NCBI GenBank assembly: GCA_902798645.1
Contig: CADBXV010000023.1
Span: 1-51,368, forward strand
DNA from: an uncultured bacterium
Lineage (GTDB): Bacteria > Cyanobacteriota > Vampirovibrionia > Gastranaerophilales > Gastranaerophilaceae
Direction: 5' to 3'
DNA: 51,368 nt
Positions 22,061-45,592 of this stretch are shown one piece after another. Position 1 is the first letter of the stretch. The number at the start of each line of letters is the position of its first letter. The translations under genes were made by a program, and so were the position numbers. Under the pieces are notes generated by a model. It had not been told where the DNA came from and made no database searches. It saw nothing but the letters and a program-made list of their open reading frames with translations.

Positions 22061-22441
22061 CTATGCTGCAAAAATATTTTGCGTATTGTCATCAATGACA
22101 AAATCCAATAATTCACCTTTGTACTCTTGTCCCTCAATGATTGAACCCGAAAGTTGTTCCCATAATTCACCTAACACATATTTTTTTCTTTTATCATTTG
22201 CATGTGCGTTCAAATACCTTAATGTTTCTTTTAAAGAACTATTCAATGTAACTTGAGTAGATGCTTTTAAAATATTAAGTTCTGTATTTGAAATAAATTC
22301 ATTGTTTGCAGAAATAGCTTTTTGTGCAATTTGTGATGCTTTTTCTGCTTCAACACCATTTTTTTGCAAAATCTCTTTTGCCGTATTTCTTAAAAATTGT
22401 TTATTTTCAAATCCCATTGATGTTGATACATTGATGCCCAT
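22061..22441 (-). CDS. Small helical protein with a sigma-28-type promoter
   Basis: The 126-residue protein is not a family I recognise. It has no signal peptide or membrane segment and is mostly helical and Asn/Gln/Lys-rich. AAGGGAT precedes the ATG. The notable point is its promoter (22530-22556), a near-perfect flagellar-sigma site. Together with a similar site upstream of the 570-residue gene at 34031, this suggests a motility or type III export-linked regulon. Both products begin with MG, a branched residue and Asn. The function is unknown. Confidence 0.65.
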   Translation of the reverse strand: MGINVSTSMGFENKQFLRNTAKEILQKNGVEAEKASQIAQKAISANNEFISNTELNILKASTQVTLNSSLKETLRYLNAHANDKRKKYVLGELWEQLSGSIIEGQEYKGELLDFVIDDNTQNIFAA

Positions 22442-22529
22442 GATTTATCCCTTTTCTCGGCGAATCCCTAAATGCCCTTGACTATTTAACTTTTCTGTAC
22501 TTCTTTTGTTTTTCCCTTTTGTACTATAT

Positions 22530-22556
22530 ATATCGGCATAAATTTTTAAAACTTTA
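22530..22556 (-). promoter_or_regulatory. Sigma-28 (FliA)-type promoter
   Basis: On the minus strand, TAAAGTTT (22549-22556), 11 nt, GCCGATAT (22530-22537). The known FliA consensus is TAAAGTTT-N11-GCCGATAA, so 15 of 16 positions match with exact spacing. It lies about 90 nt before the 126-residue gene. Confidence 0.75.
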
Positions 22557-33938: not shown

Positions 33939-33966
33939 TAAAGTTTTTATCAAAAAATGCCGATAA
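33939..33966 (+). promoter_or_regulatory. Sigma-28 (FliA)-type promoter
   Basis: TAAAGTTT (33939-33946), 12 nt, GCCGATAA (33959-33966). Both half-sites match the known FliA consensus exactly; the spacer is one longer than the usual 11. It lies 64 nt before the 570-residue gene. Confidence 0.75.
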
Positions 33967-34030: not shown

Positions 34031-35743
34031 ATGGGTGTAAATTCTGTCAGTGACGCACAATTTCAAAGAGCGCTTATATACGCATCAGATGCGCAAAAAG
34101 TGCTAAAAATGGATTTAACAGCAGACCAGCGAGGTCAACTTGTTGCAAGATGGGGTGCAGAAAATGTTAAAGCTTGGACTTCAGTTGACGGAAACGATTA
34201 TATTATAGATGATGTCAGTTATGATTCCGCTAAACAAGCCGGTCAAGATGCTGCGGCAGACAGAGTCGGATACGACGGGGGTAAAAGCTACAGCGCATTG
34301 GTTGATGTGGCTGGAAGTGCTGCCACTGTAGTATCAACAGCTTTAATGAGTACAATAGGAGGTAAAGTATTATCAAAAATTACTCAAAAAGCTGTTGAAA
34401 AAGCGGCTGAAAAAGCAGGCGAAAAGTTGTCTTTAGAAGCATCAAAGAAACTTGCAGAAAAGACGTCTCAGAAAATGGGTGCAAGAGTTGCTGCTTGTTT
34501 TGCAGCGGCTGAGGCAACAAGATATTTAGCGGCAAAACCTAATAAGGAACAGTATGATAAACTAATGCAAATACAACAAAGTGAACTTCCGCAAGGTGTT
34601 GAAGCTTTAAATCAAGCACAGTCAGATTTAGCTGATGCAACAGAAACAGTTATTGCTCTTTCTGAAGAAGCTGAAGAAATGAGCGAAGAAACTAATGAAG
34701 AAATAGAAGGCAGAAAAGCTTTGTTTGATTTTTACAGAACTCAATATGATACACTTAAAACAAAAGCTTTATCAGGTGAGCCTTTAACTCAACAGGAAAA
34801 AGATGTATTAAAAGAATTGGTTCCTACAATGGAAGCAATTGGAGAAGATATTGTTACATTAGGTGATGACGCAACTGAAGGTGTTGAAGATTTGTACTCT
34901 CAAATCGGAGATGCTCAAGAAATGTATGATGACAGTGCTGCTTCTATTGCAGAAATAGAAGGTATGACAGAATATGTTGAAGGATTTGACGAAGCAACAA
35001 GAACTATGGCTTATGTTGAAATGGCTGCACAAGGTTTGAATGCTGCAAGTGCTGGCACTGCAACCGGAATTCTTATGGCAACAAATATTTTTGGTTGGAA
35101 TACCCCGTTTATAGCATTAGGATTGTACGCAACCGGTGTAAGCGGTAATGCCGTATTTGAACAAAAAAACATGGCAAGTGCCATTTCAGAAGAAATACAT
35201 TTACGTCGTGATGTTCAATCACTTGGTGAAGAAACAACAGGTGTTTATTTGGAAGAACTGGATAACTATGCAGGTGCGCAAGAAGTAGTTGAAGATCTTG
35301 AACTTGAGATGCCGGAAGATTTAGAAGTTCCTCCTGATGCAGAAACTTTTGCAAACTCTCAACAAGCAGGAGGTGCAAACTCAATTACGATGGCAGCGGC
35401 AAATCAACAAAACGGAGAAAACGGTAATAATCCGCAAAGTCCGCTTACGGCAGGTAATAGCCAAAACAATCAACAGGGTGTAAATCCGATGAATTCTCAA
35501 AACGCAAATAGAGCAGGACAACCGCCTAAATTAAATGCGGTTAAAGGCAATAAACCTAACCAAAATAATCCTGCAAATCCACATAGTCAAACAGTTGATG
35601 CAAGTCCAAATGTATTGAAAGCTGATGCAAGTGCCAATACAAATACAAAATCCGTTGACTCAAAACCAAGTAATAAAGGTGCGAAAGTTGAATCAACAGA
35701 CGCTTCAGGAAAGAAAAAGAAATCAAAGGAAGATGTTAAATAA
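34031..35743 (+). CDS. Large helical protein with hydrophobic patches, sigma-28-type promoter
   Basis: The 570-residue protein has no recognised family and no signal peptide. It has a hydrophobic stretch at about 88-117 (SAATVVSTALMSTIGG), then Lys/Glu/Ala-rich helices, an acidic coiled coil (about 180-330) and a second hydrophobic stretch at about 333-376 (ASAGTATGILMA to ATGVSGNAVF). A 130-residue Asn/Gln/Pro/Ser-rich tail ends in a Lys-rich cluster. The order coiled coil plus hydrophobic pairs recalls type III translocators, but no homology is claimed. A FliA-like promoter suggests expression with flagellar or export genes. AAAGGAG precedes the ATG, and a strong terminator follows. Confidence 0.7.
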   Translation: MGVNSVSDAQFQRALIYASDAQKVLKMDLTADQRGQLVARWGAENVKAWTSVDGNDYIIDDVSYDSAKQAGQDAAADRVGYDGGKSYSALVDVAGSAATVVSTALMSTIGGKVLSKITQKAVEKAAEKAGEKLSLEASKKLAEKTSQKMGARVAACFAAAEATRYLAAKPNKEQYDKLMQIQQSELPQGVEALNQAQSDLADATETVIALSEEAEEMSEETNEEIEGRKALFDFYRTQYDTLKTKALSGEPLTQQEKDVLKELVPTMEAIGEDIVTLGDDATEGVEDLYSQIGDAQEMYDDSAASIAEIEGMTEYVEGFDEATRTMAYVEMAAQGLNAASAGTATGILMATNIFGWNTPFIALGLYATGVSGNAVFEQKNMASAISEEIHLRRDVQSLGEETTGVYLEELDNYAGAQEVVEDLELEMPEDLEVPPDAETFANSQQAGGANSITMAAANQQNGENGNNPQSPLTAGNSQNNQQGVNPMNSQNANRAGQPPKLNAVKGNKPNQNNPANPHSQTVDASPNVLKADASANTNTKSVDSKPSNKGAKVESTDASGKKKKSKEDVK

Positions 35744-39927: not shown

Positions 39928-41637
39928 ATGTCAACAAGTATAGATTATTTTGACTATATACGCATAAGTATTGCTTCACCCGAAAGAATCTTGAAGTGGT
40001 CTTATGGCGAGGTTACAAAACCTGAAACAATTAACTATAGAACATTAAAACCGGAAAGAGACGGTTTGTTCTGCGAAAGAATTTTCGGACCTACAAAGGA
40101 CTGGGAATGCTATTGCGGAAAATATAAAAGAGTACGTCACAAAGGTATTATCTGCGAACGCTGCGGTGTAGAAGTTACAGATAGTAAAGTAAGACGTCAC
40201 AGAATGGGACACATAAAACTTGCAGCTCCGGTTTCTCACATTTGGTTTTTAAAAGGTATTCCTTCATATTTAGGTTTACTTCTTGATATGACTCTTAAAG
40301 ATCTTGAACAGGTTATTTACTTTAATAACTATGTTGTAATTGATCCTGCTGATTCACCGTTCAAGAAATTCCAATTACTTAGTGAAGAAGAATATGAAGA
40401 CTTTATATTAGAAAACGAAGAATCAAAACTGGAAGTTGGTATTGGTGCTGAAGCAATTCAAAAACTTTTGTCAGAAATCAATACCAAAGAACTTGCAGAA
40501 CAAATAAGAACAGAATTAGCTGAAGGTGTTACATCTGTTCAAAAGAAAGGCAAGTTAATTAAGAGATTGAGATTATTAGATTCATTAATTTCATCAGAAA
40601 CTGAGCCTACTTGGATGATTATGGATGTACTTCCTGTTACACCGCCGGATTTAAGACCAATGGTACAATTAGACGGCGGAAGATTCGCAACATCTGATTT
40701 GAATGACTTATACAGACGTGTAATTAACAGAAACAACCGTTTACAAAGACTTCTTGAAATGGGCGCTCCTGAAATTATCGTAAGAAACGAAAAGAGAATG
40801 CTTCAAGAAGCAGTAGACGCACTTATAGATAACGGCAGAAGAGGAAGAACAGTTGTTGGCCCGAATAACAGAGCATTAAAATCATTATCTAACATTATTG
40901 AAGGTAAACAAGGTCGTTTCCGTCAAAACTTGTTAGGTAAACGTGTTGACTACTCAGGTCGTTCAGTTATCGTTGTAGGTCCTACATTAAAGCTTAACCA
41001 GTGCGGTTTGCCGAAAGAAATGGCAATTGAATTATTTAAGCCGTTTGTTGTAAATAAACTTATCGAAAGAGGTTACGTTCAAAATATTAAATCTGCTAAG
41101 AAGATGATTGAACGCTCAGATGCAAAAGTTTGGGATATTTTAGAGGAAATAATTGATGGACACCCTGTAATGTTGAACCGTGCTCCAACCCTTCACAGAT
41201 TAGGTATTCAAGCATTTGAGCCTAAGTTGGTAGAAGGTCGTGCAATTCAACTTCACCCGTTAGTTTGTACAGCATTCAATGCTGACTTCGATGGTGACCA
41301 AATGGCTGTTCACGTTCCTCTTTCAATTGAGGCGCAAACTGAAGCAAGAATGTTAATGTTAGCAACAAATAACATATTGGCTCCGGCTAACGGAAAACCG
41401 ATTATTACACACTCACAAGATATGGTACTTGGTTTGTATTACTTAACTATTATGAAAGATCCAAACCAAGAAGTTAAAGGTTACTTCTACAGCTTTGCAG
41501 ATGCAATCGCAGCATTGGAAGCAAAAGTAATTACGTACCATGATAAGATTGTAGTTCGTGATGAAAAAGGTAAGAGAATTGAAACTACTGTAGGCAGAAT
41601 TTTATTCAACGAAGCAGTTCGCAAAGCTCTTGCATAA
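39928..41637 (+). CDS. rpoC1: RNA polymerase gamma subunit (N-terminal part of beta-prime)
   Basis: The 569-residue chain is the N-terminal part of beta-prime: the zinc ribbon ([23 protein letters not shown]), the clamp, the rudder region and the catalytic [12 protein letters not shown] that binds the active-site Mg. It ends at a stop about where cyanobacterial rpoC1 (gamma) ends, and the rest of beta-prime is in rpoC2. The gene split is a shared trait of Cyanobacteria, plastids and their non-photosynthetic sister lineages. AAGGAGA precedes the ATG. Confidence 0.98.
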
Positions 41638-41674: not shown

Positions 41675-41698
41675 GGTGTGGTAAAAACTACACCCTAC
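41675..41698 (-). repeat. REP-like element, opposite orientation
   Basis: On the minus strand, a GTAGG head followed by GTGTAGT-type stem (GGTGTGGT / ACTACACC on the plus strand) with an AAAA loop. It is partner of the element at 41639-41661. Confidence 0.7.
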
Positions 41699-41731
41699 GA
41701 TAACAAAATAGAGAAATTGAGGAAATATAAA

Positions 41732-44700
41732 ATGGAAAATACTTACACACACAAAACTCATATTCCTGAATTCATCAATAAACAGATGGATAAAAAGGGT
41801 TTGAATAAGTTGCTGGCTCAAATCTATTTGGAATACGGCGGAGCTAAAACAGCAGATTTAGCTGATACTCTTAAGAACTTGGGTTATAAAATGGCAACTC
41901 AATCAGGTGTTACAATTTCTATCTCTGATTTGCAAGTTCCTGATACAAAGAAAGAGCTTTTGGAAGAAGCTGAAAAAGAGATTGAAAAATCAACACACAG
42001 ATATTTAAAAGGTGAAATTACAGAAGTTGAAAGATATACAAAGGTTATTGATACTTGGTCAGAAACAACCGCAAAGCTTACTGAACAAGTAGTCGAAAAC
42101 TTTGACAGATTGAATCCGGTATATATGATGGCATTCTCCGGAGCGAGAGGTAACTTATCTCAGGTATCACAATTGGTAGGTATGAGAGGTTTGATGGCTG
42201 ACGCGCAAGGACAAATCATTGACTTGCCGATTACATCAAACTTTAAAGAAGGTTTATCAGTTACGGAATACATCATTTCATCATACGGTGCTAGAAAAGG
42301 TCTTGTAGATACAGCGCTAAAAACAGCTGACTCAGGATACTTAACAAGACGTTTGGTTGACGTAGCACAAGATGTAATCATCCGTGCTGAAGATTGCGGC
42401 GGTGATAAATATATTAATATGAAGCCTATTATGGATGGTGATGTTGTTATTGTTCCGTTGGTAGACAGATTATTAGGCAGAACTGTTGCTCAAGATATAT
42501 TTGATGAAGACGGAAAAACATTGTTAGTAGCAAAAAATACAACAATGGACAGAAAAGATATTAAGAAGATTTCACATTTAAATCTAACAGAACTAAAAGT
42601 ACGTTCAGGTTTAACTTGTTCGCTCGAATACGGTGTTTGCCAAAAATGTTACGGTTGGGCATTAACCTCACAAAAACTTGTAGATGTTGGTGAAGCAATC
42701 GGTATTATTGCAGCTCAGTCAATCGGTGAACCCGGTACACAGTTAACAATGAGAACATTCCACACAGGTGGTGCGGTAGGCGTAAAAGAGGCAACAAAAG
42801 AAATTCACGCAACTGTTGACGGTACTGTAGAATCTAAGATGAAAACAAGAGAACTTAGAACTCGTCACGGTGATGTCGTAAGAGTTTCTATATATGAGGC
42901 AGATATAGAAATAAAATCAGGTAAAAAATCCGAAAAAATTCATATACCTGCAGGTGCGACAGTATTTTTTGAAGATGGTCAAAAAGTTGAAAAAGATTAT
43001 AAACTTGCTGAATTCAAGCCGTCATCAAATGAATCTCGTTTAACAGAAAAAGCTACAAAAGATATTAATGCTGATATCTCAGGTATGGTATTGTTTGAGG
43101 ATTTTGTTGCGGATGAGAAGAAAGACAGACAAGGTAATATCTCAAGAACGGCAAACAAAAACGGTATTGTTTGGGTTATTGGTGGTGATGTTTATAACTT
43201 ACCTGGCGGTTCTAAGATACTTGTTGAAGATGAGCAAAAAGTTAAAGCCGGCGAAAGACTTGCAGAAACTCTAATTATCTCTGAACATGGCGGAGAAGTT
43301 CGTTACGGAGACGATTTAGTTGTAGAAGAAATTAAATCTGGCAAGAACAAAATCAATAAAATTGTATCAGGTAAGGAAATAACAATTGTAATTGCTTCTT
43401 TAGCACCTTCAAATGCAAAATTTGAACAAACAAAGAAAGAACAATTATGGACTGTTAAAAAGTCTGACGAAAAATACATTGTTAAAGCTCCGATTGATAC
43501 AACTGTTGAAAACGGAATGATTATAGCAGAACTTATAGATGATGAATGTTCTGTTACATCAAGTGGTGAAATTAAGTATTTAGATATTGAAGTTGATGAA
43601 AATCAAATAGTTACAAAACCGGGTAATGTTGTTTTTGTTCCTGAAGAAGTTCATCAGCTCAACAAAGATGCAACTCTCAGAATGGTTGAAAACGGTACTT
43701 TTGTTACTGCAGGTACTGAAGTTGTAAAAGATGTATATTGCCATATTGACGGTATTGTTGAATTTAAGGAATTTAACGGTGTAATTCATGAAATTACAAT
43801 TCGTCCCGGTGAAGTTCATACATTACCAAGCATGTCTGAGTTAAAAGTGGAAGAAGGCTCTGTCGTTGAGGCAGGTACTACAATTGCAAAAGGTATCAAG
43901 GTTAAAGAAACTTCTATTGTTTCATTAATGGAAATGGATTTTGATGATCTTGATATCGATGATTTAGACGAAGAAATTGATACAACTTCTTTAGAAGAAG
44001 AAACAATTGAAGACAAACCTGTTCAAATTTTAATAAGACCTGTTCAAACAATTTATATTGAGCCAAAAGAGGTTTCAATTAAGTTTGAATCTACAGATGA
44101 ACTTATAAGCATTGTTCCTGTTACTCAGCTCCAATACAAAGACGGAGCAAGAGTAAGGAATTTAGACGGTGCAACTTTAACCAGAACATCATTAGTTCTT
44201 CAAATGCAAGGTTATTTATCACATCTTAAAGGTTTGGTTGAACTTGATGAAAAAGGCAATTTAAAGATAGTTGTTCTTGAAACGTTAATTGTTCGTCGTG
44301 AATTGGAAGGTAATTCAAAACTAAACAATTCATTACAAACAGAGTTACTTGTTAAAAACGGTGATGTAATTGAAGCTAAGACACCTGTTGCAAAGACTGA
44401 TGTACTCGCTCTTAATGACGGATCAGCATCAGTTAAAGGTGATTTATCTGAATCAAGAAGGTTATTACTAAACTGCACAAACTATGAAACTACAATTTCA
44501 ACAAAGAATAAACCGTCAGTTAAAAAAGGCGAGTTTATAAAACTTGATACAGAGCTTGCAAGTTCAGGTGAAACCGCAACAGTTTCCGGTAAAATAATAG
44601 ATGTCACAGCAAAATCTGTAACAATCAGAAATGGACGTCCTTACTTAATAAGCCCAGGTACAATGTTACAGGTTGAAGAAGGCGCTCTTGTTCAACATGG

Positions 44701-45592
44701 CGATATGTTAGCATCGTTAGTATTTGAAAGAGAAAAAACAGGCGATATCGTTCAAGGTTTGCCGAGAGTAGAAGAATTGCTTGAAGCTCGTAAACCAAAA
44801 GATTGCGCAATCTTGGCTGAATACGATGGTACTGCAAAAATCGTTATAGAAGATGATGTTCCGAGATTATATCTTGAAAATGAAGAAGGTTCTTCTACAG
44901 AAATCAAGTTTGCAATTGATGCAAGTATTGTTGTAACAAACGGTCAAAAGATTAAGAAAGGTCAGCCATTAACAAGCGGTCCTCTTAATCCGCATGATAT
45001 TATAAGACTTTGCGGTCCTGAAGAAGCTCAGCAATACTTGGTAGATGAAGTTCAACGTGTATATCGTTCACAAGGTGTAGAAATTGCTGATAAACACGTA
45101 GAAATCATTGTAAGGCAAATGACTAAGAAAGTTAGAATTGTTGATTCAGGTGATACAAATTTACTACCCGGTGAATTGGTAGAAGTTCAAACTTTTGAAA
45201 ATGAAAATAAAGCGGTAAAAGAACATGACGGTCAAGAAGCGACTTGTGAATACATGTTACTTGGTATTACCAAAGCTTCATTGAACACTGAATCCTTTAT
45301 TTCAGCTGCTTCATTCCAAGAAACTACAAGAATATTGACTGAAGCTGCAGTAGATGGTAAGAAAGATATGTTAAGAGGTTTGAAAGAAAACGTAATCATT
45401 GGTAGATTAATTCCTGCCGGTACCGGTTTCCATCACTTAACATACGCAAGCGAGGAACGTGACAGAGAAGCTCAAAAAAGAGCTGCTCAACGTAACCAAG
45501 CAAGAAAACCTTCTGCAATATTAGAAGAAATTGAAGGTATGTTTGGCGCTCCTGAACTTACAGCTGGTAATGACAGTATCATTGAAGATTAG
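41732..45592 (+). CDS. rpoC2: RNA polymerase beta-prime subunit (C-terminal part) with a large insertion
   Basis: The 1286-residue chain holds the rest of beta-prime: bridge-helix and trigger-loop flanks ([24 protein letters not shown] and [16 protein letters not shown]), then a very long insertion of beta-rich repeats in the trigger loop (from about residue 350 to 1000, like cyanobacterial SI3), then the C-terminal clamp ([32 protein letters not shown]). The insertion contains an acidic stretch near 733-761 ([11 protein letters not shown]). The start is taken at ATG 41732, with GAGGAAA upstream; an in-frame ATG at 41678 lies in the REP hairpins. Confidence 0.98.
   Translation: [1286 protein letters not shown]

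What the first reader, a model, noticed from the sequence alone, without database searches (positions are those of the whole stretch)
22530..22556. Near-perfect sigma-28 promoter upstream of an unknown small gene
TAAAGTTT-N11-GCCGATAT on the minus strand matches the FliA consensus at 15 of 16 positions with exact spacing. Chance occurrence in AT-rich DNA is unlikely because the GCCG half is GC-rich. A second site of the same type (33939-33966) precedes another unknown protein. No flagellar gene is in the window, so these may be unrecognised members of a motility or export regulon.
Basis: partly seen in the sequence, partly recalled or inferred. Interest (0 to 1): 0.65.

Follow-up and report, generated by a model that had tools for sequence, protein, structure and literature searches.

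The report
FliA promoter of an orphan-gene regulon
The site is very probably a real promoter for the flagellar sigma factor FliA, one of about 25 identical ones in this gut bacterium, and most of them sit in front of unknown proteins rather than flagellar genes, which suggests the flagellar programme also runs a large, uncharacterised set of possibly exported proteins.

Summary
TAAAGTTT-N11-GCCGATAT lies at 22556-22530 (-), and a second site (N12 spacer) at 33939-33966 (+). The 2.07 Mb genome (Candidatus Gastranaerophilales) holds 25 exact TAAAGTTT-N10-12-GCCGATA sites, against 0 for the reversed pattern and about 0.03 expected. A FliA sigma factor, flagellins, FliD, hook/rod genes and FlhA are present. 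All 28 homologues of the 126-aa product in the genus keep the site (26 exact; control windows 2/566), as do 23 of 30 homologues of the 570-aa product (control 2/802). So these are FliA promoters (my inference, about 0.93).

The surprise is regulon content. FliD, one flagellin (1 mismatch) and an HD-GYP protein are targets, but most targets are orphan proteins; none of 34 here has a signal peptide (background 9/69). Seven of eight flagellin-type genes tested lack a site. A relative (G046) with no flagellin, hook or flagellar FlhA detected keeps FliA, 20 exact sites and a second flagellum-like rod/ring/FlhA cluster. I infer that FliA here mainly times leaderless proteins exported by a flagellar-type apparatus. 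Export is untested and the machine unresolved. Functions of the two window proteins remain unknown.

The parts
22530..22556 (-). FliA (sigma-28) promoter: -35 TAAAGTTT at 22556-22549, 11-base spacer, -10 GCCGATAT at 22537-22530
   Evidence: 15/16 match; one of 25 exact sites in the genome; kept upstream of all 28 homologues found
22448..22453 (-). Shine-Dalgarno-like AAGGGA before the ATG
   Evidence: read directly
22061..22441 (-). orphan gene, 126 aa (P0001); predicted mostly helical, no signal peptide, invariant C-terminal NIF.A; function unknown
   Evidence: no Pfam, NCBIfam, PHROGs or PADLOC family; AlphaFold pLDDT 44
33939..33966 (+). second FliA promoter: -35 TAAAGTTT 33939-33946, 12-base spacer, -10 GCCGATAA 33959-33966
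   Evidence: site with at most 2 mismatches upstream of 23 of 30 homologues, 12 exact
34031..35743 (+). orphan gene, 570 aa (P0002); long helical/coiled-coil core, Gly/Ala-rich segments, disordered C-terminus, no signal peptide; function unknown
   Evidence: no family in Pfam, NCBIfam, PHROGs, PADLOC; AlphaFold pLDDT 43.7

Best explanation
The site is a promoter read by RNA polymerase carrying the genome's FliA (sigma-28). It drives a small orphan gene that belongs to a FliA regulon of roughly 25-37 sites. The likely logic is the usual late-gene logic of FliA: when a flagellar-type apparatus is completed, FliA becomes free and switches on late genes. Here these include FliD, one flagellin and a c-di-GMP-type HD-GYP protein, but mostly leaderless orphan proteins, which I infer to be substrates or helpers of a flagellar-type (type III) export apparatus, either the flagellum itself or the second rod/ring/FlhA system that the whole order carries. 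Shown computationally: the sites, their excess over chance, their conservation upstream of homologues, the presence of fliA, the make-up of the targets, and their persistence in a genome without detected flagellar filament genes. Inferred: actual transcription by FliA, release of FliA on completion of an apparatus (no FlgM was sought), export of the products, and the choice of machine.
For: 25 exact sites against 0 reversed and about 0.03 expected. Site kept before 28/28 P0001 homologues and 23/30 P0002 homologues, controls 2/566 and 2/802. FliA present, its regions conserved across the order including G046. FliD (exact) and one flagellin (one mismatch) have the site. About 24 of 25 sites lie in the sense direction shortly upstream of a start codon (with the homologue of one small gene recognised). 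At least 10 target families are shared with their site between G000 and G020. Targets: 0/34 signal-peptide-like by a crude hydrophobicity test against 9/69 background; EF-hand-like loops 5/34 here and 7/22 in G046 against 0/69. In G046 target proteins fall into families sharing an N-terminal 60-90 aa and differing beyond it, the arrangement often seen in secreted effectors. G046: no flagellin, only the second-type FlhA, only second-cluster rod genes, no hook or FlgK detected, yet FliA and 20 exact sites.
Against: No transcription or secretion data. Seven of eight flagellin-type genes tested have no site, unusual for a FliA regulon. Families f2, f3, f5 and f7 have FliA and flagella but 0-3 exact sites, and two of their flagellins lack one. 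G046 is a MAG, 87% complete, so absences could partly be missing sequence. FliPQR/FlhB in G046 were not searched, so that its second apparatus can export is unproven. The signal-peptide test is crude, and lack of a signal peptide also fits ordinary cytoplasmic proteins.
Confidence: 0.6

Rival explanations
1. The promoters are real FliA promoters, but the orphan products are cytoplasmic motility accessories (regulators, chaperones, chemotaxis or c-di-GMP helpers) and are not exported.
For: Campylobacter and E. coli FliA regulons include non-flagellar genes (PMC4183435, PMC9856085). One target is a GAF/HD-GYP protein. Very small conserved targets of 40-52 aa look more like regulators or chaperones than effectors.
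Against: Many targets are large (300-1500 aa), modular, with LysM, EF-hand-like or weak transglycosylase matches, and G046 keeps such targets without detected flagellar filament genes.
Confidence: 0.25
2. FliA and its regulon serve only the flagellum; G046 merely lacks its flagellar genes because the assembly is incomplete.
For: G046 is 87% complete; G049, of the same genus, has flagellin hits.
Against: Flagellins, hook, FlgK, flagellar FlgB/C/F/G and flagellar FlhA lie at several separate loci in relatives; losing all by random incompleteness is unlikely. The second cluster and FliA are intact there.
Confidence: 0.25
3. The two boxes are not a sigma-28 promoter but an operator for an unknown regulator, or a dispersed repeat.
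For: Extra conserved bases around the boxes (A-tract in the spacer, T before GCCG). Relatives with FliA but few sites.
Against: The match is to the FliA consensus in both boxes and spacing; spacers differ between sites; sites are directional and upstream of start codons; FliD and a flagellin carry them; no flanking repeat is conserved.
Confidence: 0.05

Closest known systems
Campylobacter jejuni sigma-28-dependent Fed proteins (flagellar co-expressed determinants) and flagellum-exported proteins such as CiaI and FlaC (PMC9856085, PMC5223770)
   Same: Non-flagellar genes with sigma-28 promoters, co-expressed with flagella, not needed for motility; some C. jejuni proteins are exported through the flagellar export apparatus
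   Different: Four Fed genes there against about 25-37 sites here; protein families unrelated as far as searched; export not shown here; here one relative keeps the regulon without detected flagellar filament genes
Escherichia coli FliA regulon (PMC4183435)
   Same: Same consensus boxes and spacing; late flagellar genes plus non-flagellar targets
   Different: In E. coli fliC and many class 3 flagellar genes are core targets and many ChIP sites are inside genes; here most flagellins lack the site and nearly all exact sites are upstream of orphan genes
Chlamydia trachomatis sigma-28 (PMC10597470)
   Same: Sigma-28 kept in a bacterium without flagella that has type III secretion with flagellum-like parts
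   Different: Regulon of two genes (hctB, tsp) there; here at least 20 exact sites in the filament-less relative G046

Membership tests
FliA (sigma-28) promoter | -35 TAAAGTTT and -10 GCCGATAA with about 11 bases between | tested here: met
   15/16 with N11; second site 16/16 with N12
FliA (sigma-28) promoter | A cognate FliA sigma factor in the genome | tested here: met
   FliA/WhiG family above cut-off
FliA (sigma-28) promoter | Excess over chance and conservation upstream of orthologues | tested here: met
FliA (sigma-28) promoter | FliA-dependent transcription start | not testable with these tools
   needs 5'-end mapping or in vitro transcription
Classical flagellar class 3 regulon | Late flagellar genes (flagellin, FliD) carry the site | tested here: inconclusive
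   FliD yes and one flagellin yes with one mismatch; seven of eight flagellin-type genes no; motA, cheY, flgM not searched
Fed-like flagellum-exported proteins | Sigma-28-dependent promoter on a non-flagellar gene | tested here: met
Fed-like flagellum-exported proteins | Export depends on the flagellar type III apparatus | not testable with these tools
   only indirect: no signal peptides, shared N-termini in G046

The most novel reading that the evidence does not exclude
In Gastranaerophilales, FliA has largely moved from the flagellum to a second, flagellum-derived export apparatus (rod, MS-ring-like FliF, FliH-like, FlhA2), conserved in the whole order, and times a large set of otherwise unknown exported proteins aimed at host or neighbouring cells; the two window genes belong to that set.
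Probability: 0.25. Interest if true: 0.85.

Novelty: new variant of a known kind. Interest (0 to 1): 0.58.

Why it matters
It gives a sequence handle on dozens of orphan proteins in common, uncultured gut and rumen relatives of cyanobacteria: a single motif groups them into one regulon. If the products are exported, it would point to a large undescribed secretome in a non-pathogenic gut lineage, and to a sigma-28 programme kept without a flagellar filament, which makes the question of how a flagellar regulon is repurposed directly testable.

Tried and rejected
Structure prediction of both proteins gave poor models (pLDDT 44 and 43.7), so no fold search was run. Profile searches of PDB sequences gave nothing convincing: the V-ATPase subunit E match to P0001 (E 0.001) is in a coiled-coil-like helix and I take it as chance; P0002 had nothing. 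Pfam, NCBIfam, PHROGs and PADLOC gave no family for P0001 or P0002. A first upstream scan read minus-strand loci on the wrong strand and undercounted; it was replaced. I considered that P0001 might be a FlgM-type anti-sigma factor or a FliS-type chaperone; no family model supports either. Nearness of P0001 homologues to flagellin genes in some relatives was noted but not counted as evidence, because related genomes share gene order. Likeness of P0002 to type III translocators (two hydrophobic stretches, coiled coil) is impression only, not tested. The literature searches found reports of flagella in some Gastranaerophilales (PMC4040986, PMC5877343) but nothing on their FliA regulon; the held library is partial.

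Full report
Observation. The minus-strand site reads TAAAGTTTTAAAAATTTATGCCGATAT at 22556-22530, 15 of 16 consensus positions with N11; the second reads TAAAGTTT-N12-GCCGATAA at 33939-33966. Across the 2.07 Mb genome there are 25 exact TAAAGTTT-N10-12-GCCGATA sites and none for the reversed pattern; base composition predicts about 0.03. With up to 2 mismatches at N11 there are 54 against 12 for the control, so the excess is in the good matches.

Organism and sigma factor. A genome-collection search with the 126-aa protein found two records, both named Candidatus Gastranaerophilales (rumen MAGs), so the window comes from that non-photosynthetic relative of cyanobacteria. A FliA/WhiG-family sigma factor lies at G000:C7:43654-44316 (235.5 bits, cut-off 189.6), confirmed by NCBIfam and by PDB relatives including E. 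coli FliA 6pmi. Flagellins, FlhA and FlhB, and hook/rod genes are present. Literature reports flagellar genes in some members of the order (PMC4040986, PMC5877343).

Conservation. I fetched homologues of both window proteins from same-genus genomes and scanned 260 nt upstream. P0001: 28 of 28 have the site within 2 mismatches, 26 exactly, at 27-97 nt from the start codon with differing spacers; other windows in the same loci 2 of 566. P0002: 23 of 30, 12 exact; controls 2 of 802. The two named records carry it too. This is strong evidence for selection on the site.

Regulon content. Downstream of the 25 exact sites and about 12 near-exact ones are FliD (exact site; Pfam FliD_N and FliD_C), one flagellin (one mismatch, L055), a GAF/HD-GYP protein (L050) and otherwise mainly proteins without a Pfam family, some with LysM, EF-hand-like or weak lytic-transglycosylase matches. 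Of eight flagellin-type genes tested, only the one above has a site within 400 nt. In a second species, G020, 20 sites were examined: FliD again, and at least ten orthologous target families with the site kept, including peptides of 40, 42 and 52 aa. By a crude hydrophobicity test 0 of 34 (G000) and 0 of 22 (G020) targets have a signal peptide, against 9 of 69 background proteins. One family (MGLSASQ..., L030, L037, L038) is shared with G046 and keeps conserved N- and C-terminal helices around a variable middle.

A natural experiment. G046 (another family of the order, 87% complete) has no flagellin match, no flagellar-type FlhA and only two rod-gene matches, both in a second cluster. It keeps FliA (243.7 bits) and 20 exact sites. 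None of the genes I could call downstream of those sites is recognisably flagellar; several share an N-terminal domain with EF-hand-like loops and differ beyond it. The second cluster encodes FlgF/G-like, FlgB, FlgC, FliE, FliF-like, FliH-like and a divergent FlhA that scores closer to FlhA than to SctV; an FHIPEP of this second type is found in nearly all genomes of the order examined. So the regulon seems separable from the flagellar filament.

Interpretation. That both sites are FliA promoters I put at about 0.93. That the orphan products are exported by a flagellar-type apparatus I put at about 0.55-0.6, mostly from absence of signal peptides, modular N-termini in G046 and the parallel with Campylobacter (PMC9856085, PMC5223770). 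Whether the flagellum or the second apparatus exports them is open. P0001 and P0002 are confined to this genus in my searches, so G046 says nothing direct about them. Their functions are unknown: no family, no usable structure.

What does not fit. Families f2, f3, f5 and f7 have FliA and flagella but 0-3 exact sites, two of their flagellins lack one, and most flagellins here lack one too; what transcribes those flagellins is unexplained. Chlamydia trachomatis is a known case of sigma-28 without flagella, but its regulon is two genes (PMC10597470).

Noticed in passing
L047:48-3368 (G000:C38), L159, L160, L161, L162, L163: A second flagellum-like cluster (rod proteins, FliE, FliF-like, FliH-like, divergent FlhA) besides the flagellar FlhA, found across the order; possibly a separate export apparatus
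   Followed up: partly
L048:790-2256 (G000:C99): A 488-aa protein with only the cytoplasmic part of FlhA (no membrane domain), present in most genomes of the order
   Followed up: partly
L032:3100-3225, L041:2130-2285, L004:1338-1457: Very small proteins (42, 52, 40 aa) directly behind exact FliA sites, almost unchanged in another species
   Followed up: partly
39928-41637 and 41678-45592: rpoC is split into two genes, as in cyanobacteria (rpoC1 and rpoC2)
   Followed up: no
L028:537-2978: 814-aa FliA-site target with a weak PHROGs match to an internal virion protein with endolysin domain
   Followed up: no
L069-L076: Most flagellin genes of this genome have no recognisable sigma-28 site within 400 nt
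   Followed up: partly
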